A program made the position numbers and the translations under genes. Positions 13,178-26,921 of a stretch of DNA of 64,000 bases are shown here, in pieces. Positions within the stretch are counted from its first letter, which is position 1. Each line of letters opens with the position of its first letter. Source of the stretch: Arthrobacter sp. zg-Y844 (GTDB lineage: Bacteria; Actinomycetota; Actinomycetes; Actinomycetales; Micrococcaceae); the NCBI RefSeq assembly GCF_024385465.1, contig NZ_JANFLS010000002.1:744001-808000 (forward strand), in the 5' to 3' direction. The notes beneath the pieces were generated by a model. It was given only the letters and a program-made list of their open reading frames with translations. It did no database searches and was not told the origin of the DNA.

Positions 13178-13255
13178 GGGCCTGGCTCCGGCGGCAACGA
13201 AATTCCAGAGCTCGCAGAGCTCGCTTGGAATATTAAAGCCGCCTCCGCCAGACCC
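13178..13255 (+). repeat. Structured intergenic repeat, copy A
   Basis: This copy has a conserved core at 13190-13243: GGCGGC, then AACGA, a variable stem ATTCCA/TGGAAT (13202-13207 and 13226-13231), a conserved apical GAGCTCGCAGAGCTCGC, ATTAAA and GCCGCC. Outside the core, GGGCCTGGC (13178-13186) pairs with GCCAGACCC (13247-13255) with one mismatch. It lies downstream of the M6 protease. Copies B and C are at 24951-25039 and 25838-25915. Confidence 0.85.
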
Positions 13256-13286
13256 TACGGCTAACCCGCAGCGTCACCGCACAATC

Positions 13287-13328
13287 GAAAAGGCAGGGCC
13301 TCGGTATCGTCCGAGGCCCTGCCTTTTC
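13287..13328. terminator. Bidirectional intrinsic terminator
   Basis: Perfect 18-bp arms, 13287-13304 and 13311-13328 (GAAAAGGCAGGGCCTCGG and its complement), around a six-base loop TATCGT. A-run and T-run flanks give a U-tract in both directions. It separates the M6 protease (plus) from the GNAT pair (minus). Confidence 0.92.
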
Positions 13329-13352
13329 CTTGTTGCGGTCGTCCCTAGATCG

Positions 13353-13877
13353 CTATGCCCCAGTTGGTGGGGAGTCTTCCCAGTATTCTTCGCCGTCCTC
13401 GTCAAAACGGCCGGTCGGGGTGAGGCCCAGGTGGCGGGCGACCGAGGCTGAGGCAGTGTTTTCCGGATGGATAGACGCCGTGATCCGGACCGGTGGTTGT
13501 TGGTGCCGCAGCCAGGTGACCATGGCTCGGGCAGCCTCGGTGGCAGCACCCCGACCCTGGAACGCCTCACCCACCACCCACGCAACGTCCGACGTCGCCC
13601 CGTCCGTCTCCACCGTGGCCTGGACAAACCCGATGCTTCTGCCCTGTTCACGGATAATCCAGTTGAGCCACGCCTCACGGCCGTCCGGCGATGATCCAAT
13701 CGATTGGGCGGCATACCGCTTCTCCAGCTCCTCAGCTGTCGGTGCCTGACCGCCGATGTACTGGTAGATGGCTGTGCCGGCCAAAACGCTCACCATGTCG
13801 GCCGCGTGGTGCACACCCAACGGTTCCAGTGTGAAGCGGTCGGTGGGGATCAGTGCGGCCCGCAGGATGTCCGGCAT
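13353..13877 (-). CDS. GNAT family N-acetyltransferase (RimJ/RimL-like)
   Basis: 174 residues with the RimJ-type N-terminus LIPTDRFTLEPLGVHHAADM, the acetyl-CoA loop WVVGEAFQGRGAATEAARAMV near 115-135, and the closing IHPENTASASVARHLGLTPTGRF block. Its own start is ATG 13877. The upstream GNAT ends only nine bases before it, so the two are almost certainly co-transcribed. They are about as similar to each other as two members of the same superfamily and do not look like a recent tandem duplication. The acceptor is unknown. Confidence 0.88.
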   Translation of the reverse strand: MPDILRAALIPTDRFTLEPLGVHHAADMVSVLAGTAIYQYIGGQAPTAEELEKRYAAQSIGSSPDGREAWLNWIIREQGRSIGFVQATVETDGATSDVAWVVGEAFQGRGAATEAARAMVTWLRHQQPPVRITASIHPENTASASVARHLGLTPTGRFDEDGEEYWEDSPPTGA

Positions 13878-13886
13878 CGCTTCCTC

Positions 13887-14435
13887 CTAAAGGATCCGCT
13901 GGAAGAGCAGATGGTCCTGCCACTCTCCGGCAATTCGCAGGTAGTCCGGTGCCATGCCGATCCGCTCGAACCCTGAGCGGTCCAGGACTCTCTGCGACGC
14001 GGCGTTCTCAAGCAGGGTTGCCGCCTGGATCCGGTGCAGCCCCAGCTGGCTTCGACCCAATTCGACGACTGCCGCCACCGCTGCAGTGCCGATCCCCCGT
14101 CCGGCGTAATCGCCGTCCACCCAGTAGCCGAGGTTGGCCGATTGGAAGGGACCTCCGACGATCCCGGTGAGGGTAATGGTCCCGATGATCCGCTCGTGAT
14201 GAACCAGGACCCAGGGCACCTCCGTACCCGCGGCATGCTGGACCAGCTTTGATCGGATGACCGAGCGTTGGCCGGCAGGAGTGAAGAACGAATCCTCCCG
14301 GAGCGGTTCCCAAGGCGCCAAGTAGGTCCGGTTCCGGTGGTAGGCCGCAGCGAGTGCATCGGCGTCGGACAAGTCCGCGACTCGAAGCCGGACACCGTGC
14401 AGCAGCTGTGTGGCGGGGAAAGGTTCGCTAAGCAC
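13887..14435 (-). CDS. GNAT family N-acetyltransferase (RimJ-like)
   Basis: 182 residues. VRLRVADLSDADALAAAYHRN opens the fold, YWVDGDYAGRGIGTAAVAAVV near 105-125 is the acetyl-CoA loop, and AATLLENAASQRVLDRSGFERIG is the conserved C-terminal block. The combination LAPWEPLREDSFFTPAGQ is typical of ribosomal-protein-serine acetyltransferase relatives (RimL). It is the first gene of a two-GNAT operon. Start ATG 14435. Whether it modifies a ribosomal protein or a small metabolite cannot be read from the sequence. Confidence 0.88.
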   Translation of the reverse strand: MLSEPFPATQLLHGVRLRVADLSDADALAAAYHRNRTYLAPWEPLREDSFFTPAGQRSVIRSKLVQHAAGTEVPWVLVHHERIIGTITLTGIVGGPFQSANLGYWVDGDYAGRGIGTAAVAAVVELGRSQLGLHRIQAATLLENAASQRVLDRSGFERIGMAPDYLRIAGEWQDHLLFQRIL

Positions 14436-14578
14436 ACTTCAGGGTAGCTGCCGTGTTCCCGGTCACTGTGTAAAGCGCCTACGCCGCGCGTCGCCACCGG
14501 AGCGCCAGTGCAGGGCCCGCGCAATGCCCGCCGTCTCCCACGCGGCCAACTCGCAGGTTGGTGTGGAAAGCTGGCCCC

Positions 14579-15034
14579 ATGAATAGGACGGAACGGATTC
14601 CAGCGTGGCTGCGCCGCACCGGCATTGAGGTGGCCGGATGGTCCCTGGTGATCCTGGGCCTGGCCGCTCTGGTGCTCCCCGGCCCGGGGCTGCTTATGGT
14701 GGTGGCCGGGCTGGCCGTCCTGTCCCTGCGCTATGCGTGGGCCCACCGCTGGCTGCATCCAGTGAAAGCACGCGCTTTCCGTGCGGCCGCTCAGGGGGTG
14801 CAGACCACGCCGCGGATTGTCGCGACTGTCTGCGGCGGCCTGGCGGTCATGGCCGCCGGCGTGATCTGGGGGCTTTGGCGGCAGGTGCCGCATTGGTGGC
14901 CGCTGCAGGATTCCTGGTGGCTGCCCGGCGGGTGGGTCACCGGTGGAACGCTCATTGGGTCGGGCGTCATCGGCCTGGCCCTGATTGTTTACAGCTATGT
15001 GCGCTTCCGCCGTCCGGGGTCAACCCGTCACTAG
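14579..15034 (+). CDS. PGPGW/TIGR02611 family transmembrane protein
   Basis: 151 residues with two N-terminal hydrophobic stretches separated by the family hallmark LVLPGPGLLMVVAGLAVLS (PGPGW-type motif), then an amphipathic part (WLHPVKARAF). Two further membrane segments follow at about 80-100 and 120-145. The start is ATG 14579, with GGAAAG about nine bases upstream. The family has no known biochemical activity; members are small actinobacterial membrane proteins. It ends convergently with the MFS gene at 15061. Confidence 0.85.
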   Translation: MNRTERIPAWLRRTGIEVAGWSLVILGLAALVLPGPGLLMVVAGLAVLSLRYAWAHRWLHPVKARAFRAAAQGVQTTPRIVATVCGGLAVMAAGVIWGLWRQVPHWWPLQDSWWLPGGWVTGGTLIGSGVIGLALIVYSYVRFRRPGSTRH

Positions 15035-15060
15035 GTCCTCGACGCCGGGGGCCGGCCCGT

Positions 15061-16308
15061 CTAGCGGAACCCGGCCAGCGACTTGGTAAAGGCGACCGGC
15101 AGCGCGGCCAGCCCGGCCAGCACTGCCCACAGCCAGAGCACCGGCAGGGTGCCCGCTGCCGCTGCCGCCAGCCCGGCCAGCAGCGCTGCCACGGGCATCA
15201 CGCCGAGGGTCAGCGTCCGTTGCGCGGCACCTACCGTGGCCAGTTCGTTCCGCGGCACCGTCCGGGGCAGCACTTCCGCACCGGCGACGCCGGACAGAGC
15301 CACCAGGCAGCCCCAGGCCAGGGTGGAACCCGCTAGCCACGCCAGCGCCGGACCGGGGAGGGCGGAACAGAACACCGCCAGCAGGACGGCGGGCACCGAC
15401 AGCAGGGCGGCACCGGTCCTGACCGCTTTCAGCCCCAGCCGGCCTGTGAGGTACGGCGCGGCCGCAGCACCGGAAACGGCTCCGAGAGCGGACAGCACCC
15501 CCAGGGCCGCAAAGGCCGGCGGCGCAACAGCCAGGTCTCGCAGCACGTAGACCGGCAGGACGGTGTTGCCGACCATGGCACCGGCATTCGTCAGGCAGGC
15601 GGACAGGGTCAAGGCCCTCAGCGCCGGGGTGCGCCGGAGCGTGGCGAATCCACGGCGGGCCCGCCCACGTGCAGGGCGCCCGGGAGCCGGTGCAGCCGCA
15701 GGCAGCCGGATCCCGAGTTGAACCAGCCAGGACGAGGCATAGGCCGCAGCACCGGTCAGGAGCAGCACCGGCATGCCCAGCAGACCCAGAACAGTGCCGG
15801 CCGCGGCAGCGCCGCCCGCAGTAGTCGCCTGGTTGATCATGGCCAGCCGTGAGTAGGCCCGCTTCATTCCCTGCGGACCGGACACCACCGGGACAACGGT
15901 GGAATGGGCGGTGGTGAAAAGGAGGTCCGCGATGCCGATCAGCACGGCAGCAGCGAACAGCCCGCTTCCGGAGAGCCACCCCTGCCAGGCGCCGGCGGCG
16001 AGGAACAGCAGGACTCCGCAACGCAGCAGGGAAGCTGCCCCCATCGCAAGCAGCGGTTTGCCGCTGCGGTCCACGGCCACTCCGGCGCTCATACCCAGCA
16101 GCAGGAAGGCTGCAATTCCGGTGGCGTTGAGAATACCCACGAATACCGGCCCGAGACCCAGCACCGCAACCGCAAGAATGGGCAGGGCCGTGCGGGTCAG
16201 GGCGTCGCCGAAACCTTCCGCCGCACCCGTGGAGGCGAGGAAGCGGAAAGGGCGTCCGCTCCGCCCCCCGTCGGCCGTCACCGGATCCGGAAGTTGATCA
16301 GTAGCCAC
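15061..16308 (-). CDS. MFS transporter
   Basis: 415 residues with about twelve membrane segments in two halves. AGVAVDRSGKPLLAMGAASLLR between segments two and three is the motif-A loop of major facilitator proteins. The hydrophobic core and lack of a large soluble domain suggest an efflux carrier of the enterobactin-exporter/macrolide-efflux type, substrate unknown. I chose GTG 16308: AGGGGGAG lies six bases upstream, whereas the longer ATG at 16323 would place the start codon inside an operator palindrome and turn the Shine-Dalgarno into coding sequence. It is divergent from the zinc-finger/HTH gene and likely repressed through the two dyads at 16322-16367. Confidence 0.87.
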   Translation of the reverse strand: MATDQLPDPVTADGGRSGRPFRFLASTGAAEGFGDALTRTALPILAVAVLGLGPVFVGILNATGIAAFLLLGMSAGVAVDRSGKPLLAMGAASLLRCGVLLFLAAGAWQGWLSGSGLFAAAVLIGIADLLFTTAHSTVVPVVSGPQGMKRAYSRLAMINQATTAGGAAAAGTVLGLLGMPVLLLTGAAAYASSWLVQLGIRLPAAAPAPGRPARGRARRGFATLRRTPALRALTLSACLTNAGAMVGNTVLPVYVLRDLAVAPPAFAALGVLSALGAVSGAAAAPYLTGRLGLKAVRTGAALLSVPAVLLAVFCSALPGPALAWLAGSTLAWGCLVALSGVAGAEVLPRTVPRNELATVGAAQRTLTLGVMPVAALLAGLAAAAAGTLPVLWLWAVLAGLAALPVAFTKSLAGFR

Positions 16309-16321
16309 GCGACTCCCCCTC

Positions 16322-16346
16322 ATGTGTCAGGTAATGCCTGACACAT
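16322..16346. promoter_or_regulatory. Operator-like palindrome 1 upstream of MFS gene
   Basis: Perfect dyad with ten-base arms ATGTGTCAGG and CCTGACACAT around TAATG. Its right part, CCTGACA preceded by a five-base spacer, is repeated in box 2; centres are 24 bases apart. It sits immediately upstream of the MFS Shine-Dalgarno, where a bound repressor would block transcription. Confidence 0.75.
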
Positions 16347-16348
16347 AC

Positions 16349-16367
16349 TTTCAGGGGTTGCCTGACA
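16349..16367. promoter_or_regulatory. Operator-like palindrome 2
   Basis: TTTCAGG-GGTTG-CCTGACA, an imperfect copy of box 1 (TGTCAGG-N5-CCTGACA, one arm base different). The five-base inner pairs TCAGG/CCTGA are exact. It lies between the MFS start and the start of the zinc-finger protein gene, so it could affect both. Confidence 0.65.
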
Positions 16368-16410
16368 GCACAAGGGGTAGGTTCGATGGACCGCTGGCTA
16401 GACTGGGGCC

Positions 16411-16806
16411 ATGCCTTCTGAGCTGAGCGGTACGGACCGCGATCACCCGGGAAACGAGCCCTTTATGTGTTCGTTCTGTCTTCGGCCGCGGGAGGAAACC
16501 GGAGTATTGGCAGCGGCCCCCACCGCAGCCATCTGCCGGGACTGTGCGGAAGGTGCCCGGAAACTGCTGGATACACCCCGTCCGGCGGACCCCGATCCGC
16601 TGCCGGCCACGCCCTGGGACGCGCTGAGCAACGACGAGTTGCTGGAACGGCTCCCCCGCGTTGCGGAAGCACGGGACCAGGTGGAGGAGCAGCTACGTCG
16701 CTGGGTGGGAGCGGCCCGCGCCAGGAGCATCAGCTGGGCCGCCATCGGCTCGTCGCTGGGGATGTCCCGCCAATCCGCATGGGAGCGTTTCCGGACCGCG
16801 CCCTAG
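16411..16806 (+). CDS. ClpX-type C4 zinc-finger and HTH protein
   Basis: 131 residues. A ClpX-like C4 zinc finger occupies about 20-50: CSFCLRP near 22-25 and CRDCAEGARKLL near 46-49. A charged linker, a helical segment LLERLPRVAEARDQVEEQLRRW (about 80-100) and a C-terminal helix-turn-helix SWAAIGSSLGMSRQSAWERF follow. There is no AAA+ domain, so it is not ClpX. It might bind DNA or act as an adaptor. Start ATG 16411. It is adjacent to the double operator but there is no evidence that it binds it. It ends one base before the convergent UvrA paralogue's stop. Confidence 0.8.
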   Translation: MPSELSGTDRDHPGNEPFMCSFCLRPREETGVLAAAPTAAICRDCAEGARKLLDTPRPADPDPLPATPWDALSNDELLERLPRVAEARDQVEEQLRRWVGAARARSISWAAIGSSLGMSRQSAWERFRTAP

Positions 16807-16807
16807 G

Positions 16808-19339
16808 CTACGGGAGCAGCTTGAGCGCCGCAGACAGGTAGGGTGCCGTCCGGCTGGCGTCGCACGCGGCGACGTCGTCGGCGGTGCCGGCGCAGATGAT
16901 CCGGCCGCCTTCCTCGCCGCCGGAGGGGCCCATGTCGATGACCCAGTCCGCGGACGCCACCACATTCATGGAGTGCTCAACCACCACCACGGTGTTGCCG
17001 TTATCCACCAGCCGGTTCAGCTGGCGCAGCAGCAGCTGCACGTCCTGCGGGTGCAGGCCGGTGGTCGGCTCGTCGAGCAGGAACAGCGTATGGCCGCGGC
17101 GGGCGCGCTGCAGTTCGGTGGCGAGCTTGATCCGCTGTGCTTCGCCGCCGGAGAGCTCGGTGGCGGGCTGGCCCAGGCGCAGGTAGCCCAGCCCGACGTC
17201 GAGCAGCGTCCGCAGGCTCCGGGCTGCCGCCGGAACGTCAGCCAGGAACTCGGCGGCGGTTTCCACCCGCATCGCCAGGACATCGGCAATGCTCTTGCCC
17301 CGGTAGGTGACCTGCAGGGTTTCCTCGTTGTAACGGGCGCCGTGGCAGACCGGGCAGGGGCCGTAGGTTCCGGGCAGGAACAGCAGTTCGACGGCGAGGA
17401 AGCCTTCGCCCTGGCAGGTCTCGCACCGTCCGCCGGCCACATTGAAGGAAAAGCGTCCGGCGTTGTAGCCGCGGGCGCGGGCTTCCTCGGTGCCCGCGTA
17501 CAGCTTCCGCACCGCGTCGAAGAGTCCGGTGTAGGTGGCCAGGTTGGAGCGCGGGGTGCGGCCGATGGGCCGCTGGTCCACCCGGACCAGCCGGTCCAGG
17601 TGTTCCAGTCCGGCAATGCTGCGCACGTGGGCCCCCGGATCATGTTCTTCGGGAGCCTCCGGGTCTTCGGGTTCAGTCGGCACGCCGTTCACCTGGCGGC
17701 CCACCGTTTCGGCCAGGACCTGGCTGACGAGGGTGGATTTGCCGGAGCCGGAGACGCCGGTCACCGCGGTGAAGACCCCGAGCGGGATCTCCGCGTCCAG
17801 TCCGCGCAGGTTGTGCCGGGTGATTCCCTTCAGGCTCAGCCACTGGTCCGGCGTGCGGCGGGCCGGCTTTGCTGTTTCGGCCTCCCCGAAGAGGAACGGA
17901 CGGGTGGCGCTCTCCTCAACCTCGGCCAGGCCCTCGACCGGTCCGCTGTAGAGCACGGTTCCGCCGCCGTCGCCGGCCTGGGGACCTACGTCCACAATCC
18001 ATTCGGCGCTGCGCACCACATCCATGTTGTGCTCAACGACGAACACGGAGTTGCCGGCGTCCTTGAGTTCCTGCAGCACGGTCAGCAGCGGCTCGGCGTC
18101 GGCCGGGTGCAGTCCCGCGGAGGGCTCGTCCAGGACATAGATAACCCCGAAGAGGCCCGAGCGCAGCTGGGTGGCGATCCGCAGACGCTGCATTTCCCCG
18201 GGTGAAAGGGTGGGGGTGGCACGGGAGAGGCTGAGATAGCCGAGGCCCAGGCCGATCAGCACCTCCAGCCGGCCCAGCAGGTCCCGCGTGATGGTTACCG
18301 CAACTTCAGTGTCTTCATTGGAGGCCGCCGCACGGGAGGCGGTGCCCGCAGATTTCAGTTCCGCCGTCGGCCGGATGATTTCGGCCAGCTCCGCCAGCGT
18401 GGCGCCGTTCAACTCGGCAATGTTCCGGCCGGCGAACGTGACGGCGAGCGCCTCGGGACGCAGGCCCGCTCCGCCGCAGACGGGGCAGGGACCGGACACC
18501 ATGTAGGCCAGGACGCGTTCGCGCATCTGGGCGCTGCCGGAATCCGCGAGGGTGTGCATCACGTAGCTCTTGGCGCTCCAGAACCGCCCCTTGTACGGTT
18601 TGGCTACGCGGTCGCGCTGCGGGGTGATCATGACTACCGGCTGTTCTTCCGTGAACAGGATCCAGTCACGGTCCTTCTTCGGCAGCTTCTTCCAGGGCAC
18701 GTCGACGTCGTAGCCGAGCTGGATGAGGATGTCACGCAGGTTCTTGCCCTGCCAGGCTCCGGGCCAGGCGGCAATCGCGCCGTCCCGGATGCTGAGGCTG
18801 GGATCCGGGACCAGGGACTCTTCGGTGACGGTATGCGCAATGCCCAGTCCGGAGCACTCCCGGCAGGCGCCGGCGGCTGTGTTCGGCGAGAAGGCGTCAG
18901 AGTCGAGGCTGCCCGGTTCGGCATTTGCCGGATAGGTGCCACCGCGCGAATACAGCATCCGCATCGAGTTGGAGAGCGTGGTGAGGGTGCCGACGGTGGA
19001 GCGCGAGCTGGGGGCTCCGCGGCGCTGCTGCAGGGCGACGGCGGGCGGCAGCCCGGCGATTTCCTCCACCTTCGGGTTGTGCCCCTGCGAGAGCAGGCGG
19101 CGCGCATAGGGGGCCACCGACTCGAAGTAGCGCCGCTGCGCCTCGGCGTAGATGGTGCCGAAGGCCAGGGACGATTTACCCGAACCCGAAACCCCGGTGA
19201 AGGCGACAATCGCGTCGCGAGGGATGTCGACGTCGACGTTGCGCAGGTTGTTCTCCTGCGCTCCGCGCACGCGCACCATGCCGCTGGCGTGCAGATTAGG
19301 GGCAGATTCCGGGGAAGTTTTCGCGCTAGTCATCATCAA
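16808..19339 (-). CDS. Class II UvrA paralogue (ABC ATPase)
   Basis: 843 residues, about 100 shorter than canonical UvrA, as in class II UvrA proteins. It has two ABC ATPase halves. The first has Walker A GVSGSGKSSLAFG near 50 and signature LSPGEMQRLRIA near 385. The second has GVSGSGKSTLV near 545 and LSGGEAQRIKLA near 735. Zinc-type cysteine pairs are CRECSGLG and CPVCGGAG, then CETCQGEG and CPVCHGA. Members are linked to DNA damage tolerance or resistance to DNA-intercalating drugs, but the DNA-binding insertion of housekeeping UvrA appears reduced. No uvrB is nearby, so this is not the main uvrA locus. Start ATG 19339; MTSAK two codons later is also possible. Confidence 0.9.
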   Translation of the reverse strand: MMMTSAKTSPESAPNLHASGMVRVRGAQENNLRNVDVDIPRDAIVAFTGVSGSGKSSLAFGTIYAEAQRRYFESVAPYARRLLSQGHNPKVEEIAGLPPAVALQQRRGAPSSRSTVGTLTTLSNSMRMLYSRGGTYPANAEPGSLDSDAFSPNTAAGACRECSGLGIAHTVTEESLVPDPSLSIRDGAIAAWPGAWQGKNLRDILIQLGYDVDVPWKKLPKKDRDWILFTEEQPVVMITPQRDRVAKPYKGRFWSAKSYVMHTLADSGSAQMRERVLAYMVSGPCPVCGGAGLRPEALAVTFAGRNIAELNGATLAELAEIIRPTAELKSAGTASRAAASNEDTEVAVTITRDLLGRLEVLIGLGLGYLSLSRATPTLSPGEMQRLRIATQLRSGLFGVIYVLDEPSAGLHPADAEPLLTVLQELKDAGNSVFVVEHNMDVVRSAEWIVDVGPQAGDGGGTVLYSGPVEGLAEVEESATRPFLFGEAETAKPARRTPDQWLSLKGITRHNLRGLDAEIPLGVFTAVTGVSGSGKSTLVSQVLAETVGRQVNGVPTEPEDPEAPEEHDPGAHVRSIAGLEHLDRLVRVDQRPIGRTPRSNLATYTGLFDAVRKLYAGTEEARARGYNAGRFSFNVAGGRCETCQGEGFLAVELLFLPGTYGPCPVCHGARYNEETLQVTYRGKSIADVLAMRVETAAEFLADVPAAARSLRTLLDVGLGYLRLGQPATELSGGEAQRIKLATELQRARRGHTLFLLDEPTTGLHPQDVQLLLRQLNRLVDNGNTVVVVEHSMNVVASADWVIDMGPSGGEEGGRIICAGTADDVAACDASRTAPYLSAALKLLP

Positions 19340-19421
19340 CAGGTTACCGAGCCCGTGCTCCCGGGACTAAATCATCAGCATGCTTTCCGCCTAGAGCGTG
19401 AGCTGCCGGACTGGCACGTTC

Positions 19422-20366
19422 TTACCCCTTGGCATCATGGGCGTGCCGCAGCGCCGTCCCGTACCGCCGCAGCAGGGCATCGCCTGCCTGCCGGGCAGCC
19501 GGCGAGACAGTGTCCAGGGTCAGGAAGCCGTGCACCAAACCGGGGTGGGGCACATAGTCGACGTCGGTTCCACGGCGCATCAGGGTTTCAGCCAGCAGCT
19601 GCCCCTCGTCCCGCAGCGGATCATGCTCTGCCGTAGCGAGCAGGGTCCGCACGGACATCAGCCGCCGTCCGCCGGCAGCGGCAACAGCCAACGGGCTGTA
19701 CTCGGCAAACATCTCCGGGGACGCCGCCGGCACCCACTGTGAAATGAAGAACGTCAGGTCCCGCACCGACAGACCCCATCCCTCACCCTTTTCGCCGGCA
19801 CTGGGCAGGGCCAGGGCCAGGTCGGCGTTGGGATAGGCCAGCAGGAGCAACTGAGGCTGCAACGCGGTACCGGCCAGCCTGTCTGCGGCCAGGAAAGCGA
19901 TCAGGCCGCCGGCACTGTCACCGGCCAGCCCGACGCCGGGACGGACGGACCCCAGTTCCCCCGGACCCTCCGCAACCCAGGCCAGGGCACACACAATGTC
20001 ATCCACTGCCGCCGGCGCGGCATGCTCGGGGGCGAGCCGGTAGTCCACCGCCAGGACCGCGGTGTTGGCCAACAGTGCGAGGCGGCGGCAGAGCCTGTCG
20101 TGCGACTCGAGCCCGCCGAACACGAACCCGCCGCCGTGCACAAACACCGTCAGCGGCTGAATTCCGGCACCAGAGCGGTACAACCGGGCCCGCAGCGCAG
20201 GCCTTCCGGGGATGGTGATGTCGGTGACGCTGGCAAGCTCCGGACCGGGAGGCCGGGCTCGGTCCTTCCTCAACAAACAGATGGTTTCGAGTGAGGGCTC
20301 CACGCTTTCGCCGGTACGTATCTCCTCCAGCCAGGCAGCCAACGCTGGATCGGCTATGGACTCCAT
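19422..20366 (-). CDS. Alpha/beta hydrolase, HSL-type esterase
   Basis: 314 residues of the hormone-sensitive-lipase group. The oxyanion motif is VFVHGGGFVFGG near 100. The nucleophile is the Ser of AGDSAGG near 172. The acid/His pair is probably the Asp of EHDPLRDEG near 265 and the His of HPGLVHGF near 295. The start is ATG 20366 (MESIADPALAAW); the open frame continues to 20558, but that part would overlap the promoter of the divergent gene at 20530 and has no family similarity. These enzymes hydrolyse short acyl or aryl esters. No signal peptide, so cytosolic. Confidence 0.9.
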   Translation of the reverse strand: MESIADPALAAWLEEIRTGESVEPSLETICLLRKDRARPPGPELASVTDITIPGRPALRARLYRSGAGIQPLTVFVHGGGFVFGGLESHDRLCRRLALLANTAVLAVDYRLAPEHAAPAAVDDIVCALAWVAEGPGELGSVRPGVGLAGDSAGGLIAFLAADRLAGTALQPQLLLLAYPNADLALALPSAGEKGEGWGLSVRDLTFFISQWVPAASPEMFAEYSPLAVAAAGGRRLMSVRTLLATAEHDPLRDEGQLLAETLMRRGTDVDYVPHPGLVHGFLTLDTVSPAARQAGDALLRRYGTALRHAHDAKG

Positions 20367-20529
20367 GCGCCCAAACCTACCAGCGCCGTTTGCGGGACAC
20401 CTTCCACCCGGCGGGCGCCGGGAGGAAAATGAGGACACCAGCGGACTCCACGATTGCTCTTCGATGTGCACATGGCCACGTACGGCGGGCCCGCCACGCA
20501 CCCCGGGGGAATTATCAAAGGAGATTGAC

Positions 20530-20910
20530 ATGAGCTTCTGGGAATCCATGTGGCGCATCGTTGTGGCGTTCTTTTTCGTGGCCTATCTAATCCTGCTGTT
20601 CCAGATCCTGTCGGATCTGTTCCGTGACCGGGAACTCGGCGGTTTCGCCAAGGCGGCCTGGATTTTCTTTCTGTTCGTCGCCCCCTTTATTACGGCGCTG
20701 GTGTACATCATCGCCCGGGGCGGAGGCATGGCTGCGCGAAGTGAGGCCCGGGTCCGGGAGGAGGCGGAGGCAACGGACAGCTATGTACGGCGGATCGCCG
20801 GAACGGCTTCTCCCGCCCAGCAGATTGAGTCCGCGCGCAGCCTCCTTGCCGACGGGAGCATCACAGAGTCCGAGTTTGACCGGCTGAAGTCCATGGCGCT
20901 GTCCGCCTAA
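20530..20910 (+). CDS. SHOCT domain-containing membrane protein
   Basis: 126 residues. Two transmembrane helices (about 8-28 and 40-62) of the phospholipase D-nuclease N-terminal (PLDc_N) type are followed by a short cytoplasmic linker. A C-terminal SHOCT motif lies near 95-125 (IESARSLLADGSITESEFDR). The start is ATG 20530 with a perfect AAAGGAG seven bases upstream. SHOCT modules are thought to mediate oligomerisation. It is probably co-transcribed with the holin-like gene 11 bases downstream. No enzymatic residues are visible. Confidence 0.85.
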   Translation: MSFWESMWRIVVAFFFVAYLILLFQILSDLFRDRELGGFAKAAWIFFLFVAPFITALVYIIARGGGMAARSEARVREEAEATDSYVRRIAGTASPAQQIESARSLLADGSITESEFDRLKSMALSA

Positions 20911-20921
20911 CCCCCGGCCGC

Positions 20922-21320
20922 ATGAAAAACCTGCTGATCACGTGCCTGCTGCAGATACTTGCGGCAAGCGCAGCCCTTCTGCTGAGTATGTGGTGGGTGC
21001 CCGGATTCCGCGTCCAGTGGCCCGGATTCGTCGCCACGGTACTGGTTGTGGTGCTCGCCCAGGCACTTATGACGCCGCTGACCAACTGGGCGGCAAAACG
21101 CTACGCACCCGCGTTCCTCGGCGGGACGGGGCTCGTCGCTGCCCTGTTGGCGTTGGTGATAGCCAGTACCATCCCCGCTGGAGTCAGCAACACCGGGATT
21201 GGCAACTGGATCCTTTCGGCACTCATCCTCTGGGTCGCATCGGCGGCCGGAACAGCGGTTGCCCAGGTTTTGGCCTCACGTCGCGGGGGCTCCCCGGACC
21301 AGGCTGCCGGACGCGCATAG
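20922..21320 (+). CDS. Phage holin family (DUF/4_2-like) membrane protein
   Basis: 132 residues with four hydrophobic segments. MKNLLITCLLQILAASAALL and WVPGFRVQWPGFVATVLVVV give the alternating pattern of the phage_holin_4_2/YvlD family, in which a WxxPG-type motif follows the first helix. The middle has ALMTPLTNWAAKRYAP. Such proteins are chromosomal membrane proteins in most bacteria and not phage lysis factors. No lysin is nearby. It follows the SHOCT gene by 11 bases and is probably its partner. The start is ATG 20922. Confidence 0.75.
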   Translation: MKNLLITCLLQILAASAALLLSMWWVPGFRVQWPGFVATVLVVVLAQALMTPLTNWAAKRYAPAFLGGTGLVAALLALVIASTIPAGVSNTGIGNWILSALILWVASAAGTAVAQVLASRRGGSPDQAAGRA

Positions 21321-21485
21321 CCCTGCTCCCCGCCTAACCTGCTCCGTTGCTGCCCGGTGCGCCGGAATCCCGGCACGGACCACGGGTTTGTCGAACGCCG
21401 GTATGTGGGTAGGGTCGATTCGGAAGCGGCGTGATCCACGCCATAGCGGTCAGTCCACGGCTGTCCGCCGGCGTCCTTGCGGCCT

Positions 21486-21505
21486 ATGTTACTCACGAGT
21501 AACAT
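21486..21505. promoter_or_regulatory. Palindromic operator upstream of fadA
   Basis: A perfect dyad, ATGTTACTC-AC-GAGTAACAT, ending 46 bases before the fadA GTG start. The TTACTC...GAGTAA form is typical of TetR-family operators controlling actinobacterial fatty-acid degradation genes; the regulator itself is not in the window. Confidence 0.75.
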
Positions 21506-21551
21506 CGACTCGGACGTTGTTCCGTTTCATATCTCAAAGAGGAGTAAGTAC

Positions 21552-22793
21552 GTGAGCCCACAAAGCCGATCACGGCAGATCAGGGACGTAGTTTTCGTTG
21601 ACGGAGTGCGGACCCCGTTCGGCAAAGCAGGCGAAAAAGGCATCTACGCCGGCATGCGGGCTGATGACCTGGTGGTCAAGTGCATCCGCGAACTGATGCG
21701 CCGCAACCCCTCCCTTCCTCCGGAACGCATTGACGAGGTTGCCATTGCAGCCACCACCCAGTCCGGCGACCAGGGCATGACCATCGGGCGCACCGCCGCG
21801 CTGCTGGCCGGCCTGCCGCGCACCGTCCCGGGCTTCGCCATTGACCGCATGTGCGCCGGTGCCATGACGGCCGTGACCACCACTGCGTCCGGCATCGGCT
21901 TCGGCGCCTACGACGTCGTCATCGCCGGCGGTGTGGAGCATATGGGCAACCACCCGATGGGCAAGGACGCCGATCCGAACCCCCGCTTCATGACCGAGCG
22001 GCTGGTGGACCCGGCCGCCCTGAACATGGGCAACACCGCGGAAAACCTGCATGACCGCTTCCCGCACATCACCAAGGACCGCACCGACGCGTACGCCGCC
22101 GCCAGCCAGGAGAAGCTGGCCAAGGCCTACGCCGGTAACGCCATCCAGCCGGATCTGGTCCCCGTCGCCACGAAGAAGCCCGGCTCCGGCTGGACGCTGA
22201 ACACCGTGGACGAACCGCCGCGCCCGGGCACCACCGTTGAAGACCTCGCCCAGCTGCGGACCCCGTTCCGTGCCCACGGCCGGGTCACCGCCGGCAACGC
22301 CGCCGGCCTGAACGACGGCGCCACCACCGCCCTGCTGGCCTCCGCCGAAGCGGCCGAGGAACTGGGTTTGGGCGTCAAGATGCGCCTGGTCGGCTACGCC
22401 TTCGCCGGCGTCGAGCCCGAGGTCATGGGCTACGGCCCGGTCCCCGCCACCGAAAAGGTGCTGGAGCAGACCGGACTGTCCATCGAGGACATCGGCCTGT
22501 TTGAGATCAACGAGGCCTTCGCCATCCAGGTGCTGGCTTTCCTGGACCACTTCGGCATCGCCGACGACGATCCCCGCGTGAACCGCTACGGCGGCGCCAT
22601 CGCCGTCGGCCACCCGCTGGCCTCCTCGGGCGTCCGCCTGATGAACCAGCTGGCACGCCAGTTCGAGGAAGACCCGAGCGTGCGTTACGGCATGACGACC
22701 ATGTGCATCGGCCTGGGCATGGGCGCCACCGTGATCTGGGAAAACCCGAACCACCCCGACTACAACACCGATTCCACGGAGGCCACGAAGTAA
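21552..22793 (+). CDS. fadA: Acetyl-CoA C-acyltransferase (thiolase)
   Basis: 413 residues of the thiolase I family, the last step of beta-oxidation (3-ketoacyl-CoA + CoA to acetyl-CoA + shortened acyl-CoA). The N-terminus is VFVDGVRTPFGKAG, the nucleophilic Cys is in RMCAGAMTAV near 100, the catalytic His in YGGAIAVGHPLASSG near 360, and the second Cys in TTMCIGLGMG near 390. The start is GTG 21552, with GGAG eight bases upstream; the frame extends upstream to 21477 through the operator region, so it is not used. TAA overlaps the next ATG (TAATG), coupling it to fadB. Fully complete. Confidence 0.95.
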   Translation: MSPQSRSRQIRDVVFVDGVRTPFGKAGEKGIYAGMRADDLVVKCIRELMRRNPSLPPERIDEVAIAATTQSGDQGMTIGRTAALLAGLPRTVPGFAIDRMCAGAMTAVTTTASGIGFGAYDVVIAGGVEHMGNHPMGKDADPNPRFMTERLVDPAALNMGNTAENLHDRFPHITKDRTDAYAAASQEKLAKAYAGNAIQPDLVPVATKKPGSGWTLNTVDEPPRPGTTVEDLAQLRTPFRAHGRVTAGNAAGLNDGATTALLASAEAAEELGLGVKMRLVGYAFAGVEPEVMGYGPVPATEKVLEQTGLSIEDIGLFEINEAFAIQVLAFLDHFGIADDDPRVNRYGGAIAVGHPLASSGVRLMNQLARQFEEDPSVRYGMTTMCIGLGMGATVIWENPNHPDYNTDSTEATK

Positions 22794-24928
22794 TGTCTGC
22801 TCCTGACTACCAGCGCCTCGCGGGACTCTTCCCCACCGAGGTCATCACCCACTCGTACGTCTCCGACATCCAGCTGCCGGGCAACCAGGGCACCTTCGCC
22901 CTGATCACCCTGGACAACGACGTCGACCACTCACGTCCCACCACGCTCGGCCCGAACACGCTCCTTGAGCTGGGCGCGAAGCTCGACGAGCTCAAGGCCC
23001 GTGCGGACAAGGGCGAGATTGTCGGCGTCGGCGTCACCGGCAAGCCGTTCTACCTCGTCGCCGGCGCCGACCTTTCCGCCGTGAAGTCCATCTCCGAATA
23101 TGAAGACGGCGCCGCCATGGCCCACCTGGGCCATGACGTCTACGCCAAGCTCGGCAACCTGGGCGTGCCCAGCTTCGCCTTCATCAACGGCGTTGCCCTC
23201 GGCGGCGGCCTGGAGATCGCCCTGCAGTCGGATTACCGCACGGTCTCCACCGGCGCCGGTGCCCTGTCGCTGCCGGAGGCCTTCATCGGCCTGGTTCCGG
23301 GCTGGGGCGGCGTGTACCTGCTGCCGCGCCTGATCGGACCCGAGAACGCCGTGAAGGTGATGATCGAGAACCCGCTCAGCAACAACCGCACCCTCTCCGG
23401 GGCTGCCGCTTACAAGCTGGGCATTGCCGACGCCCTGTTCGAGCCGGCCGACTTCCTGGAGCAGTCCCTCGCCTGGGCCTCCCGCGTCATCAGCGGCGAG
23501 GAGCAGGTTTCCCGGCCCAACGCCGTCGAACCCGCCGAGGCCGGCGAAGCCTGGGACGCCGCCGTCGCCAAGGGACGTGCGTTTGTGGAGGCCAAGACCT
23601 CCAACGCAGCCCCCGCCCCGGCCCTGGTCCTGGACCTGCTTGAAGCCGGCAAGACCTGGACGCGCGAGGAATCCCGCGAGGCCGAGTGCAATGCCTTGGC
23701 CGAGCTCATGCAGACCCCGCAGTTCCGCTCCACGGTCTATGCCTTCCTTGACCTGGTCCAGAAGCGCGGCAAGCGCCCCGCCGGCGCGCCGGACAAGAAG
23801 CTGGCCCGCCCGGTCACCAAGGTGGGCGTGGTCGGCGCCGGCCTGATGGCCAGCCAGCTCGCCCTGCTCTTCGCCCGGCAGCTCAAGGTGCCCGTGGTGA
23901 TGACGGACATCGACCAGGCGCGCGTGGACAAGGGCGTGGGCTACGTGCACGCCGAGGTGGACAAGCTCCTGGCCAAGAAGCGCATCTCCCCCGACGCCGC
24001 CAACCGCACCAAGGGCCTGGTCACCGGTTCCGTCTCGAAGGAAGCGTTCTCCGACGCCGACTTCGTCATCGAGGCCGTCTTCGAGGAACTCTCCGTGAAG
24101 AAGCAGGTGTTCGCCGAGGTGGAGGCCGTGGTCTCCCCCGAATGCATCCTGGCTACCAACACCTCCTCGCTCTCCGTGACGGAAATGGCCGCGGACCTGC
24201 AGCACCCGGAGCGGGTAGTCGGCTTCCACTTCTTCAACCCGGTCGCCGTTATGCCGCTGCTGGAAATCGTGCGGGCTCCCAAGACCGACGACGCCGTGCT
24301 GGCCACCGCCTTTGTCCTGGCCAAGCAGCTGAAGAAGACGGCCGTGCTGGTCAAGGATGCCGCAGCCTTCGTGGTGAACCGCATCCTGGGCCGCATGTTC
24401 GGCGAGATCACCATGGTCTTCGATGAGGGCACCGACGCCGCCACCGCAGACAATGCGCTGCGTCCGATGGGCCTGCCCATGTCTCCGTTCACCCTGCTCG
24501 CCCTCGTGGGCCTGCCGGTGGGACAGCATGTGCAGGAATCACTGCACTCGGCCTTCGGTGAGCGCTTCTGGCTCTCGAAGAACTCGCAGAAGCTCATCGA
24601 CGCCGGCATCAAGTCCCTGTGGCAGAAGGACGAGGACGGCAACGCCTACATCCCCGAGGAAACCCTGGCGATGCTGGACTTCGGCACCACGCCGTCCACC
24701 TCCGAGGAAGTCCTGCGCCGGACGCAGGATGCCCTGGCCGAGGAAATCGGGCTCATGCTCGAAGAGGGCGTTGTGGCAGCTCCCGAAGACATCGACCTGT
24801 GCATGATCCTCGGTGCCGGCTGGCCGATGCACCTGGGCGGCATCACGCCGTACCTGGACCGTGTCGGGGCTTCCGAGCGTGTGAACGGCAAGAAGTTCCA
24901 TGAGGCTGCTGTAGCTGCTCCAGCCTAG
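22793..24928 (+). CDS. fadB: Multifunctional enoyl-CoA hydratase/3-hydroxyacyl-CoA dehydrogenase
   Basis: 711 residues, alpha subunit of the fatty-acid oxidation complex. The crotonase domain (about 25-200) has the oxyanion and substrate-binding block FINGVALGGGLEIALQSDYR and the acid residue in LPEAFIGLVPGWGG. A linker precedes a Rossmann NAD domain near 345 (KVGVVGAGLMASQLALLF), FHFFNPVAVMPLLEIV near 480 and two C-terminal dehydrogenase domains to about 700. It hydrates enoyl-CoA and oxidises the 3-hydroxy product for FadA. The start ATG overlaps the fadA stop; GGAGG lies 11 bases upstream. Structured repeat copy B follows as the only hairpin downstream. Confidence 0.95.
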   Translation: MSAPDYQRLAGLFPTEVITHSYVSDIQLPGNQGTFALITLDNDVDHSRPTTLGPNTLLELGAKLDELKARADKGEIVGVGVTGKPFYLVAGADLSAVKSISEYEDGAAMAHLGHDVYAKLGNLGVPSFAFINGVALGGGLEIALQSDYRTVSTGAGALSLPEAFIGLVPGWGGVYLLPRLIGPENAVKVMIENPLSNNRTLSGAAAYKLGIADALFEPADFLEQSLAWASRVISGEEQVSRPNAVEPAEAGEAWDAAVAKGRAFVEAKTSNAAPAPALVLDLLEAGKTWTREESREAECNALAELMQTPQFRSTVYAFLDLVQKRGKRPAGAPDKKLARPVTKVGVVGAGLMASQLALLFARQLKVPVVMTDIDQARVDKGVGYVHAEVDKLLAKKRISPDAANRTKGLVTGSVSKEAFSDADFVIEAVFEELSVKKQVFAEVEAVVSPECILATNTSSLSVTEMAADLQHPERVVGFHFFNPVAVMPLLEIVRAPKTDDAVLATAFVLAKQLKKTAVLVKDAAAFVVNRILGRMFGEITMVFDEGTDAATADNALRPMGLPMSPFTLLALVGLPVGQHVQESLHSAFGERFWLSKNSQKLIDAGIKSLWQKDEDGNAYIPEETLAMLDFGTTPSTSEEVLRRTQDALAEEIGLMLEEGVVAAPEDIDLCMILGAGWPMHLGGITPYLDRVGASERVNGKKFHEAAVAAPA

Positions 24929-24950
24929 CTAGGCCGTTTGTTTCGCCCGC

Positions 24951-25039
24951 GCCGGGCGGACCGGAACGGCGGCAACGAAAATCCTTTGCTCGCAGAGCTC
25001 GCAAGGATTATTAAAGCCGCCTAACCCGGTCCGTCCGGC
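24951..25039 (+). repeat. Structured intergenic repeat, copy B
   Basis: This is the most complete copy. The outer stem GCCGGGCGGACCGG (24951-24964) pairs with 25026-25039 over 14 positions with one G:T. Inside are GGCGGC/GCCGCC (24968-24973, 25016-25021) and a middle stem AATCCTT/AAGGATT (24980-24986, 25003-25009). The apical TTGCTCGCAGAGCTCGC matches copies A and C. It lies 22 bases after the fadB stop. Confidence 0.88.
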
Positions 25040-25112
25040 GCTTTCGCGTTCCTGTCCCGGTACATTTCATTCGGGTCTGGTCAGCGGGCAGCGGCCGCGC
25101 TAGCCTCCCTGC

Positions 25113-25349
25113 ATGAGTCAGGGCCCAGCATGGTCGCAGACGCGTACAAAGCGAATGGTCGTGTTCATGCTCAGTGCTTGCGTCTCGTTGTGGCTGGTTC
25201 TTCTCCTACCGTTCGACGAGCCGTGGAATTGGCTATTGATAGGTCTTTTCCTGGTACTGGGCGCTGCTTTCATTAGGCTGCTGGCAAGCTTCGTCCTACA
25301 TCAGCGTGAGGGTTACCGGCAGGAACGCCGGGAAGAGACGGGCGGCTAG
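25113..25349 (+). CDS. Small two-helix membrane protein
   Basis: 78 residues with two transmembrane helices (about 15-32, FMLSACVSLWLVLLLPF, and 38-58, WLLIGLFLVLGAAFIRLL), then a charged tail HQREGYRQERREETGG. I recognise no family. The start is ATG 25113. It is bounded by repeat copy B upstream and the DUF4287 gene 47 bases downstream, between two inverted copies of the structured repeat. Base use is less GC-rich than its neighbours. Confidence in the coding call comes from the clear two-helix design and the ATG start, not from homology. Confidence 0.6.
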   Translation: MSQGPAWSQTRTKRMVVFMLSACVSLWLVLLLPFDEPWNWLLIGLFLVLGAAFIRLLASFVLHQREGYRQERREETGG

Positions 25350-25396
25350 CGACCCCGGGAATCCGCAAAGTCAGTTCAGGATTTAGGAGAACAACC

Positions 25397-25687
25397 ATGT
25401 CTTTCCAGGCTTATCTAGACGCAGTTGAAGAAAAAACAGGATTGACGCCCCGCCAGCTCATGGATATCGCCGCAGCCAAGGGGTTCAGCGGCGGCAACGT
25501 CAAGGCCGGCGAAATCCTCGAATGGCTCAAGGCCGATTACGGAATCGGACGCGGTCACGGGATGGCGCTCGTCCATGTCATCAAAAACGGCCCCCAAATA
25601 GATCAGAAACACGTCGGAACCACAGGAACACACCGGGACGACTCCGACACCCTTTGGCTCGACGGCAGGGCCACCAAACCGGCATGA
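25397..25687 (+). CDS. DUF4287 domain-containing protein
   Basis: 96 residues of the DUF4287 family: an N-terminal helical domain (MSFQAYLDAVEEKTGLTPRQL, then ILEWLKADYGIGRGHGMALVHVI), followed by a short tail (HVGTTGTHRDDSD). The motif GRGHGMALVHVI is the family hallmark. Function unknown; members often occur as small cytosolic proteins with DUF5655. The start is ATG 25397 with TTAGGAG about 10 bases before. It is followed by a 45-base tandem array (25716-25850) and the reverse-oriented repeat copy C. Confidence 0.85.
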   Translation: MSFQAYLDAVEEKTGLTPRQLMDIAAAKGFSGGNVKAGEILEWLKADYGIGRGHGMALVHVIKNGPQIDQKHVGTTGTHRDDSDTLWLDGRATKPA

Positions 25688-25715
25688 ACCTCCCGAACCA
25701 CGCAGGCCAGGAGTC

Positions 25716-25850
25716 GGCGGCGGGTCTGGATGCTCCGAAGGAGCCGCAGGGTCCGGGTTAGGCGGCGGGTCTGGATGCTCCGAAGGAGCCGCAGGGTCCG
25801 GGTTAGGCGGCGGGTTTGGATGCTCCGAAGGAGCCGCAGGGTCCGGGTTA
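25716..25850. repeat. 45-bp tandem repeat, three units
   Basis: Units at 25716-25760, 25761-25805 and 25806-25850. They are identical except for one C to T change in unit three (GGGTCTGG to GGGTTTGG) and two possibly related bases at the edges. Each unit holds a small dyad GCTCC-N3-GGAGC. The last unit runs into repeat copy C, whose outer stem uses its 3' end. The unit length is a multiple of three but the array is intergenic. Confidence 0.9.
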
Positions 25851-25915
25851 GGCGGCTTTAATAATTTCTGCGAGCTCTGCGAGCAGGAATTTTCGTTGCC
25901 GCCGTTCCGGACCCT
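25838..25915 (-). repeat. Structured intergenic repeat, copy C (reverse)
   Basis: Read on the minus strand it has the same core as copies A and B: GGCGGC, AACGA, middle stem AATTCCTG/CAGAAATT (one imperfect pair), apical CTCGCAGAGCTCG, ATTAAA and GCCGCC (core 25851-25903). The outer stem is AGGGTCCGG (25838-25846) paired with CCGGACCCT (25907-25915), exact over nine. It lies between the DUF4287 gene and the convergent aldo/keto reductase gene. Confidence 0.85.
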
Positions 25916-25943: not shown

Positions 25944-26921
25944 CTAGAACAAAGCGACCTTCGGTGTCCGCGGGAAGATCCGGTCCAGTTCCTCAAGGTC
26001 CTTCTCGGACGGGACCCAGGAAACGGCGTCGGCATTCTGCTGCACCTGCTCCACCTTGGTGGCACCGGCAATCACGGAGGCCACGGACGGCTGTGCGGCA
26101 AGCCAGGAGAAGGCCACCTGGACTTCGGTAAGGCCGCGCTCGGCAGCGAACCGGCCAAACTCGCCAAGCTGCTCGAAGTCAGCGTTCTCGAGCAGGTTAG
26201 TCCGGGAATGCGTCAGCCGGCTGCCCTCGGGAGCCTTGCCGCTGCTGTACTTGCCCGTGAGCAGGCCGTTGGCCAGCGGGAAGTAGGGCAGCACGCCCAG
26301 TCCGTAGGCTTCGGCGGCCGGAGTGACCTCCAGCTCGGCCCGGCGGTCCAGCAGGTTGTAATGGTTCTGCGAGGAGATAAACGGAGTGAAGCCGCCCATC
26401 CGGGCCACAAACTCCGCTTCGGCAATCTGCCAGCCCGCCCGGTTGGAGTGTCCGATGTACCGGACCTTGCCGCTGGTCACCAGATCATCCAGGGCCGCGA
26501 GGGTCTCCTCGATGGGCGTCAGCGGATCCGGGGTGTGGAACTGGTAGAGGTCAATCCAGTCCGTGTTCAGGCGGCGCAGGGAAGCCTCCGCAGCCTTGAC
26601 GATGTAGCGGCGGGATCCCCGGGCACCGAAGTCTGCGCCGTTGACGCCCTTCATGTCCATGCCGAATTTGGTGGCTACCACCACGTCGTCGCGGCGGTTG
26701 CCCAGCGCCTTGCCCAGCATTTCCTCGCTGAGCCCCGGGGTGCGCCCGTAGGCGTCCGCAACGTCAAACAGCGTAATGCCGGCGTCGACCGCGGCGTTGA
26801 CGACGGCGTCGGTGCCCTCCTGCGATTCGGTGGGCGTCCCCGGACGGCCCAGGTTGTTGCAGCCCAGTCCAACCGTGGAGACGGTCAGGCCGGAATTTCC
26901 GAGTCTGTTGTAAGAAGTCAT
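25944..26921 (-). CDS. Aldo/keto reductase
   Basis: 325 residues of the AKR superfamily, YghZ/AKR-like branch. The N-terminus MTSYNRLGNSGLTVSTVGLG is typical. The catalytic tetrad is Asp and Tyr in FDVADAYGRTPGLSEEMLG (about 50-66), Lys in VVATKFGMD near 80 and His in LYQFHTPDP near 125. The NADPH site has IAGATKVEQVQQN near 290-303. It reduces aldehydes or ketones with NADPH; substrate unknown. The start is ATG 26921; an open frame extends to 27116, through the inverted repeat, and is not used. Repeat C lies 28 bases past its stop. Confidence 0.93.
   Translation of the reverse strand: MTSYNRLGNSGLTVSTVGLGCNNLGRPGTPTESQEGTDAVVNAAVDAGITLFDVADAYGRTPGLSEEMLGKALGNRRDDVVVATKFGMDMKGVNGADFGARGSRRYIVKAAEASLRRLNTDWIDLYQFHTPDPLTPIEETLAALDDLVTSGKVRYIGHSNRAGWQIAEAEFVARMGGFTPFISSQNHYNLLDRRAELEVTPAAEAYGLGVLPYFPLANGLLTGKYSSGKAPEGSRLTHSRTNLLENADFEQLGEFGRFAAERGLTEVQVAFSWLAAQPSVASVIAGATKVEQVQQNADAVSWVPSEKDLEELDRIFPRTPKVALF

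What the first reader, a model, noticed from the sequence alone, without database searches (positions are those of the whole stretch)
13178..25915. Three-copy intergenic element with two covarying stems and a conserved core
Copies at 13178-13255, 24951-25039 and 25838-25915 (reverse) share GGCGGC-AACGA-stem-(GCTCGCAGAGCTCGC)-stem-ATTAAA-GCCGCC. The middle stem (ATTCCA, AATCCTT, AATTCCTG) and the outer stem (GGGCCTGGC, GCCGGGCGGACCGG, AGGGTCCGG) have different sequences in each copy, but the partner arm changes to match. Paired parts vary and unpaired parts are conserved, which is the pattern of selection on structure, as in structured RNAs or DNA hairpin elements. The copies sit downstream of genes. 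I do not recognise the motif from known families.
Basis: seen in the sequence. Interest (0 to 1): 0.75.

Follow-up and report, generated by a model that had tools for sequence, protein, structure and literature searches.

The report
Terminator-like hairpin family with conserved core
The three look-alike stretches belong to an undescribed family of hairpins that sit just after genes in a family of soil bacteria, keep one small loop nearly unchanged while the stems around it change, and seem able to take over from ordinary stop signals of transcription.

Summary
The three copies share GGCGGC-AACGAA-stem-loop-stem-ATTAAA-GCCGCC inside a variable outer stem. A covariance model finds 19 copies in this genome. 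A strict pattern matches 24 of 25 genomes of the genus (Arthrobacter s.l.); the model matches 23 of 149 family genomes in 8 of 32 genera. On 32 copies from 7 genera, 18 of 19 predicted pairs change on both sides while C and ACGA of the loop are invariant. Rfam has no match at the copies.

Copies follow stop codons in the gene's sense: of 164, 91 have only a sense gene end nearby, 10 only an antisense one. Several genera carry them inside operons (rpoB^rpoC, grpE^dnaJ). At two sites in 19 species, element and plain terminator-like hairpin replace one another (partly by eye).

Best explanation: a hairpin that forms or protects transcript 3' ends and can replace intrinsic terminators; its loop probably binds an unknown factor (inferred). 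T's after the stem are few, wobble counts do not favour RNA, and some cores are inverted, so a spreading DNA hairpin remains a serious rival. No expression data.

The parts
13178..13255 (+). Copy 1: outer arms 13178-13186 / 13247-13255, GGCGGC 13190-13195, AACGAA 13196-13201, inner arms 13202-13207 / 13226-13231, apical GCTCGCAGAGCTCGC 13210-13224, ATTAAA 13232-13237, GCCGCC 13238-13243
   Evidence: CM hit G000:C2:757170-757263 E 5.9e-20
24951..25039 (+). Copy 2: core 24968-25021, apical loop 24988-25002, outer stem of about 16 pairs
   Evidence: best CM hit of the genome, E 2.0e-26
25838..25915 (-). Copy 3: core 25851-25903, apical loop 25870-25884
   Evidence: CM hit G000:C2:769831-769923:- E 2.4e-23
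11320..13140 (+). Gene upstream of copy 1: M6-family metalloprotease; stop codon 49 nt before the GGCGGC of copy 1
   Evidence: TIGR03296, 258.8 bits, cut-off 110.8
22703..24928 (+). Gene upstream of copy 2: FadJ/FadB-like fatty acid oxidation subunit; stop 39 nt before the core
   Evidence: below the curated cut-offs
25944..27116 (-). Gene upstream of copy 3: aldo-keto reductase; stop 40 nt before the core
   Evidence: below the curated cut-offs
25716..25856 (.). 45-bp tandem repeat, 3.1 copies at 98%, whose unit contains the GCCGCC-TAACCCGGACCC side of copy 3: the edge of the element has been amplified
   Evidence: sequence
13287..13328 (.). Ordinary bidirectional terminator (stem of 18 pairs counting its A4/T4 ends) between copy 1 and the convergent side; here element and terminator coexist
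   Evidence: z -10.05

Best explanation
The copies are members of a dispersed 3'-end hairpin family of Micrococcaceae. SHOWN: a rod of a variable outer stem, a 6-bp stem, a conserved internal loop (C-AACGA / TAAA-G), an inner stem of about 5-7 bp and an apical loop that differs between lineages; placed mostly 27-200 nt after stop codons and mostly in the sense of the gene; present at places where related species often carry plain hairpins, and exchanging with them at two compared sites. INFERRED: once transcribed, the hairpin makes or protects the 3' end of the upstream message. It would either stop RNA polymerase with at most a weak U-tract, possibly with a factor bound to the internal loop, or act as the barrier at which 3'-to-5' exonucleases halt after termination further downstream. 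Inside operons it would give partial termination or stabilise the upstream cistron. INFERRED: the internal loop, and the apical loop that recurs with a different inner part in one genus, are binding sites for an unidentified protein.
For: Position and sense: of 164 distinct copies 134 have a sense stop codon within 150 nt on the 5' side (91 only that, 43 on both sides), 10 only an antisense one, 20 neither (which removes wrong-strand frames from the first count). Operon junctions in other genera: rpoB^rpoC, grpE^dnaJ, after gyrB (downstream genes recognised by eye). Exchange in 19 species. At (2-methyl)citrate synthase the 8 species without the element have a plain hairpin: 6 with 14-25 pairs by script, G006 and G017 by eye. 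Of the 11 with it, 2 have a plain hairpin of 14 or more pairs: G007, which resembles the others' terminator, and G012. At fadJ G001 and G014 have a plain hairpin instead, G004 (script) and G011 (eye) have both, G006 keeps the outer stem with the interior deleted. Tree contrasts run opposite in 2-3 of 3 pairs. Extra plain hairpins of 10+ pairs: 12 of 112 element ends, 72 of 294 control ends (stretches of unequal length). Strand-specific flanks: UNCG loops with 2 or more further pairs 40 sense, 3 antisense; 4 or more T in the 8 nt after the outer helix in 22 of 164 copies, 0 of 164 on the opposite strand. Precedent: a U-lacking class of transcript ends with stems in Streptomyces (PMC8780764, passages).
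Against: No regular U-tract: mean 1.8 T in the 8 nt after the outer helix, 142 of 164 copies have fewer than 4 (1.6 with another stem definition). Non-Watson-Crick cells are not skewed to G.U as expected for RNA: inner stem 15 A.C against 2 G.U among 121 interiors (9 against 2 clusters after merging similar interiors), outer stem 76 A.C against 62 G.U. The core is inverted at rpoB^rpoC and grpE^dnaJ in some lineages. At copy 1 an ordinary terminator is also present. T-tailed terminators are as rare by my strict test near control ends as near elements. Of 24 rpoB^rpoC junctions without the element 15 have a plain hairpin of 9 or more pairs, the others only weaker ones by script and L294, L296 and L313 none by eye, so a hairpin is not always needed there. 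Only 3 tree contrasts exist, too few for p below 0.05. No transcript data.
Confidence: 0.5

Rival explanations
1. A small non-autonomous mobile or selfish DNA hairpin, of the REP or MITE kind, folded as single-stranded DNA and spread by an unknown enzyme. It survives after stop codons because it does little harm there, and pairing of its arms is kept by template switching between them rather than by selection.
For: Strict copy number runs from 0 to 19 among 25 genomes of the genus. Subfamilies of the outer stem recur at unrelated genes, and two sites in this genome have identical cores. Both orientations occur at one junction. No G.U bias. An edge has seeded a tandem repeat.
Against: No Y1/RAYT transposase in any of 25 genomes of the genus; other enzymes were not searched. 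No match in phage or plasmid records by DNA similarity of copy 2, nor of the strict pattern in viral contigs. Strong sense bias, 91 to 10. The rpoB^rpoC position is held in several genera. Exchange with plain hairpins.
Confidence: 0.25
2. An RNase III (or similar) processing site that cuts messages between cistrons and after genes, with the internal loop setting the cut.
For: Long double-stranded stem with an internal loop, 23-35 nt after stop codons at rpoB, grpE and gyrB. Outer-stem sequence varies while pairing is kept. Resemblance to phage T7 processing sites is recalled, not tested.
Against: Does not by itself explain exchange with terminator-like hairpins or the conserved internal loop. 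Inverted cores occur.
Confidence: 0.12
3. Ordinary GC-rich terminator hairpins, the shared core being only a relic of common descent.
For: Plain hairpins of 9 or more pairs and unrelated sequence hold the same place in 15 of 24 rpoB^rpoC and 14 of 21 grpE^dnaJ junctions without the element (L300, which that script filed as without, carries an altered element and is left out of the 24). In G006 and L321 the core seems lost while the hairpin stays.
Against: C and ACGA of the internal loop are invariant in 32 copies from 7 genera while every helix around them has changed.
Confidence: 0.1

Closest known systems
Rho-independent (intrinsic) terminators
   Same: GC-rich hairpin a few tens of nt after stop codons, with a weak T enrichment on the right strand; at two sites it takes the place of a terminator-like hairpin
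   Different: No regular U-tract, a conserved internal loop and 15-nt apical loop, about 90 nt long, also inside operons, sometimes next to an ordinary terminator
REP/PU and BIME elements with RAYT transposases
   Same: Dispersed intergenic palindromes, many between convergent genes, some in operons, multicopy
   Different: No Y1 transposase in the genus; longer; mostly in sense orientation; stems differ from copy to copy
Phage T7-type RNase III intercistronic processing signals (recalled)
   Same: Irregular long hairpin with an internal loop between cistrons
   Different: The internal loop here is conserved over genera; no cleavage known
Structured RNA motifs of comparative screens (Rfam; the Weinberg/Breaker lists as far as they are in Rfam)
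   Same: Covarying helices around conserved unpaired bases
   Different: No Rfam match at the copies; lies after genes of many kinds, not in leaders of one regulated gene class

Membership tests
Any Rfam 15 family | Covariance-model score at gathering level | tested here: not met
   0 matches for the window; none at the copies with E up to 5; 0 with E up to 1 in 11 homologous loci
Intrinsic terminator | Stable hairpin shortly after a stop codon | tested here: met
Intrinsic terminator | U-tract directly after the stem | tested here: not met
   mean 1.8 T of 8; 22 of 164 copies have 4 or more. Weakly enriched: 0 of 164 on the opposite strand. fadJ copies of several species are followed by TTTT
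Intrinsic terminator | Stops transcription | not testable with these tools
   no transcript data; only site exchange
REP/BIME with RAYT | Cognate Y1 (PF01797) transposase in the genome | tested here: not met
   0 of 25 genomes of the genus; 1 of 39 searched in all; controls ring in 5 of 14
REP/BIME with RAYT | Multicopy intergenic palindrome | tested here: met
   19 copies in this genome
RNase III processing site | Cleavage by RNase III | not testable with these tools
   only the fold is consistent
Riboswitch or leader RNA | 5' UTR of a common class of regulated genes | tested here: not met
   156 upstream frames fall into 41 clusters (some are wrong-strand frames) of diverse function; copies lie after stop codons

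The most novel reading that the evidence does not exclude
Micrococcaceae have a factor-assisted way of ending transcripts: a dedicated RNA-binding protein reads the AACGA/UAAA internal loop (and the GCUCGC-AGA-GCUCGC loop) of a U-poor hairpin, and lineages swap this module for ordinary intrinsic terminators gene by gene and use it inside rpoBC, grpE-dnaJ and gyrase operons.
Probability: 0.22. Interest if true: 0.85.

Novelty: new variant of a known kind. Interest (0 to 1): 0.62.

Why it matters
How high-GC actinobacteria end their transcripts with few U-tailed terminators is open (PMC10937400 and PMC8780764, passages). A defined hairpin module that exchanges with terminator-like hairpins at single genes gives natural experiments: the same gene with terminator, with both, and with element only. 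If its loop binds a protein, that would be a new termination or 3'-end factor; if it spreads as DNA, it is a hairpin parasite without RAYT.

Tried and rejected
Rfam with strict and relaxed thresholds found nothing at the copies. RAYT/Y1 transposase as mobiliser: absent in the genus. Phage, plasmid or viral origin: no match. A pattern match in a Clostridia contig (L212) has no inner stem and an unremarkable fold (z -1.42): taken as chance. The apical 15-mer outside the family: 54 of 396 genomes of the order have it somewhere, and outside the family the rows show the reversed control about as often (by inspection, not tallied). In 30 listed loci (L396-L425) I see neither the AACGAA/ATTAAA nor the g20 inner part; my arm score does not discriminate (3-7 of 8 there, 6 in the g20 loci). 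My first idea that pairs of copies in low-copy genomes flank a mobile cassette was dropped: in this window they are two facing gene ends, fadJ and the aldo-keto reductase. A strict T-tailed terminator test gave 8-9% both at element ends and at control ends and decides nothing. The first orientation counts were spoiled by wrong-strand frames and were redone. Kink-turn and UAA/GAN readings of the internal loop were considered and not pursued. Papers: the 10 searches listed no paper whose title or abstract start describes this motif, and the motif letters occur in no held paper. Seen only as passages: PMC6429828, PMC12306157, PMC8780764, PMC10937400, PMC2864571.
Full report
WHAT IS THERE. The three copies read by the first stage are present at the stated places. 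In the window the 17-mer that opens the core occurs three times against 0.04 expected. Each copy folds into one long rod with z-scores of -4.5, -6.3 and -4.4.

HOW MANY. A strict two-ended pattern finds 17 copies in this genome and none with the reversed control. A covariance model R1 from 64 copies (alignment A1; model) finds 19 copies with E of 2.1e-17 or better and one weak hit at 0.88. The strict pattern matches 24 of 39 genomes (this one and relatives); all 24 belong to the 25 genomes of the genus searched, and 0 of the 14 genomes of other families match. It matches 5 of 396 genomes of the order: 4 of this genus and 1 of another genus of the same family. R1 matches 23 of 149 genomes of the family in 8 of 32 genera at E 0.001; the genus g20 among the eight has the second form described below. 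No match in phages or plasmids by DNA similarity to copy 2, nor in viral contigs by the pattern.

ANATOMY AND COVARIATION. In the genus the outer helix has double changes at 5 of 7 counted pairs and the inner helix at 4 of 5; the GGCGGC/GCCGCC helix is invariant (64 sequences). Cells changed on both sides: 105 against a shuffle mean of 32.4; sliding the partner by one column drops pairing from 95% to 60% or 50%. On 32 sequences (A2: 26 from six other genera, 2 divergent copies of G007 and 4 of this genome; the two type II copies were left out) RNAalifold predicts 19 pairs, 18 with double changes, now including the GGCGGC helix. A hand-written structure gives 91 double-changed cells against 38.2 in shuffles; but its outer helix pairs in only 57% of cells, and the control slid by +1 reaches 93 cells and a score of 0.324 against 0.351, because the outer register differs by a column between rows; RNAalifold uses the other register. 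Two rows change A-U to U-A inside the internal loop (columns 36/72), so part of the loop is paired. In the loop C, A, C, G, A of C-(A)ACGA are the same in 32 of 32 rows, the remaining A in 28; on the 3' side T-T-A-A-A-G has 30, 31, 27, 32, 30 and 31 of 32. Related sequences are not independent, and arms of a hairpin can also be kept alike by template switching; the counts show kept pairing, not by themselves selection.

MODULES. The apical loop GCTCGCAGAGCTCGC is the usual one in this genus. Other genera use it too, or a hairpin tip (GGCGGCCGCGGACGGCCTT type) or a short loop (CTCGTTCCTC type) on the same internal loop. In one genus (g20: G165, G445, G464) the same apical loop sits on a different inner part (GGGGACTGGATCTCCCGGC...GGTCGACACGTCCCC), after rpoC and malate synthase in two cases identified. 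So inner part and tip occur in different combinations.

WHERE IT SITS. In this genome upstream genes are diverse: fatty acid oxidation, citrate synthase, ProC, heme O synthase, thymidine phosphorylase, alpha-glucan phosphorylase, acyl-CoA ligase and others (citrate synthase, the two phosphorylases, ProC, heme O synthase and the M6 protease pass curated cut-offs, the rest are below or by eye). Over 164 distinct copies 91 have only a sense stop codon within 150 nt on the 5' side, 43 one on both sides, 10 only an antisense one, 20 none (genes predicted by frame statistics; earlier counts suffered from wrong-strand frames). Of the 10 antisense-only cases 7 end in RpoB, 1 in GrpE, 1 in a SerA-like protein, 1 is a doubtful frame. 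In other genera places include rpoB^rpoC, grpE^dnaJ, and after gyrB, amtB and serA (rpoC and dnaJ recognised by eye). This genome has the rpoB^rpoC copy too.

EXCHANGE WITH ORDINARY HAIRPINS. At rpoB^rpoC 6 of 30 loci read have the element (one inverted, one altered); of the other 24, 15 have a plain hairpin of 9 or more pairs by script, and L294, L296 and L313 have none by eye. At grpE^dnaJ, 24 of 30 loci were resolved: 3 with the element, 14 of 21 others with such a hairpin. At the citrate synthase end 11 of 19 species have the element and 8 do not. All 8 without have a plain hairpin: six with 14-25 pairs by script, G006 and G017 by eye, as the script missed or undercounted them; those of G001, G003, G004, G005, G010 and G016 look alike by eye. 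Of the 11 with the element, G007 keeps such a terminator and G012 has an unrelated 22-bp hairpin; the other 9 have none above 10 pairs. At fadJ 15 of 19 have the element, two of them (G008, G018) with altered loops and G003 with a broken outer arm. G001 and G014 have a plain hairpin instead; G004 by script and G011 by eye have both; G006 keeps the outer stem with the interior deleted; G010 has a different interior. So in each of the 38 site-species combinations I see an element or another hairpin. The tree gives only 3 independent contrasts for the citrate synthase site, opposite in 2-3 of them and never the same way; the hairpin labels of G006 and G017 in it were set by eye.

RNA OR DNA. For RNA: the sense bias; CTNCGG motifs in the flanks, 193 sense against 38 antisense with about 57 expected each, with two or more further pairs 40 against 3; and T's after the outer helix, mean 1.8 of 8 against 0.5 on the opposite strand, 22 against 0 of 164 with 4 or more. 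Many flanks are related, so these are not independent counts. Against, or neutral: among 121 distinct interiors the inner stem has 15 A.C and 2 G.U cells, the reverse of what RNA of the sense strand predicts; after merging similar interiors 9 against 2. The outer stem has 76 against 62. The core is inverted at rpoB^rpoC in several species and at grpE^dnaJ in one.

MECHANISM. The best-supported reading is a 3'-end hairpin that can stand in for an intrinsic terminator and is also used between cistrons. The steps from hairpin to function (stopping polymerase, blocking exonucleases, binding a factor) are inferred. In S. avermitilis a class of mapped transcript ends lacks the U-rich motif (PMC8780764, passages), and canonical terminators are scarce in M. 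tuberculosis (PMC10937400, passages), so a U-poor 3' end is not odd in this phylum.

KNOWN OR NEW. No Rfam match at the copies, and my ten paper searches listed none that describes it. I file it as a new variant of a known kind: a terminator-like 3' hairpin with a conserved core and exchangeable tip.

Noticed in passing
window 17849-17899 +: Sub-threshold match to the Rfam M23 RNA (26.6 bits, gathering 41.2, E 0.13).
   Followed up: no
L291/L124 (A. mobilis), L047, L189, L209, L236, L255, L265 at rpoB^rpoC; L232 at grpE^dnaJ; L130 after a SerA-like end: The core lies in the opposite orientation inside the hairpin, at junctions where other species have it in sense; inversion between the palindromic arms would do this.
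   Followed up: partly
L286-L315 (rpoB^rpoC) and L316-L345 (grpE^dnaJ): Many Micrococcaceae genomes have a long GC hairpin at these junctions whose sequence differs strongly between species (15 of 24 and 14 of 21 junctions without the element).
   Followed up: partly
L426-L428, L172, L173 (genus g20): A second hairpin family shares the apical loop GCTCGCAGAGCTCGC but has another conserved inner part.
   Followed up: partly
L430 near 1429 (G332): The same apical loop on a short hairpin (CCCTCAGCCA...TGACTCAGGG) without either inner part.
   Followed up: no
window 25716-25856: 45-bp tandem repeat made of the 3' edge of copy 3, 98% alike.
   Followed up: partly
G016 fadJ (L362), G000 citrate synthase (L376): Short tandem repeats stand directly upstream of the element, as if its edges were prone to slippage.
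   Followed up: no
L321 (grpE^dnaJ of G431) and L363 (fadJ of G006): Apparently collapsed forms: outer stem kept, interior reduced to a short loop closed by GGCGGC-like letters.
   Followed up: partly
window 25397-25687 +: Small gene between copies 2 and 3, resembling a DUF4287 protein (recalled, not searched).
   Followed up: no
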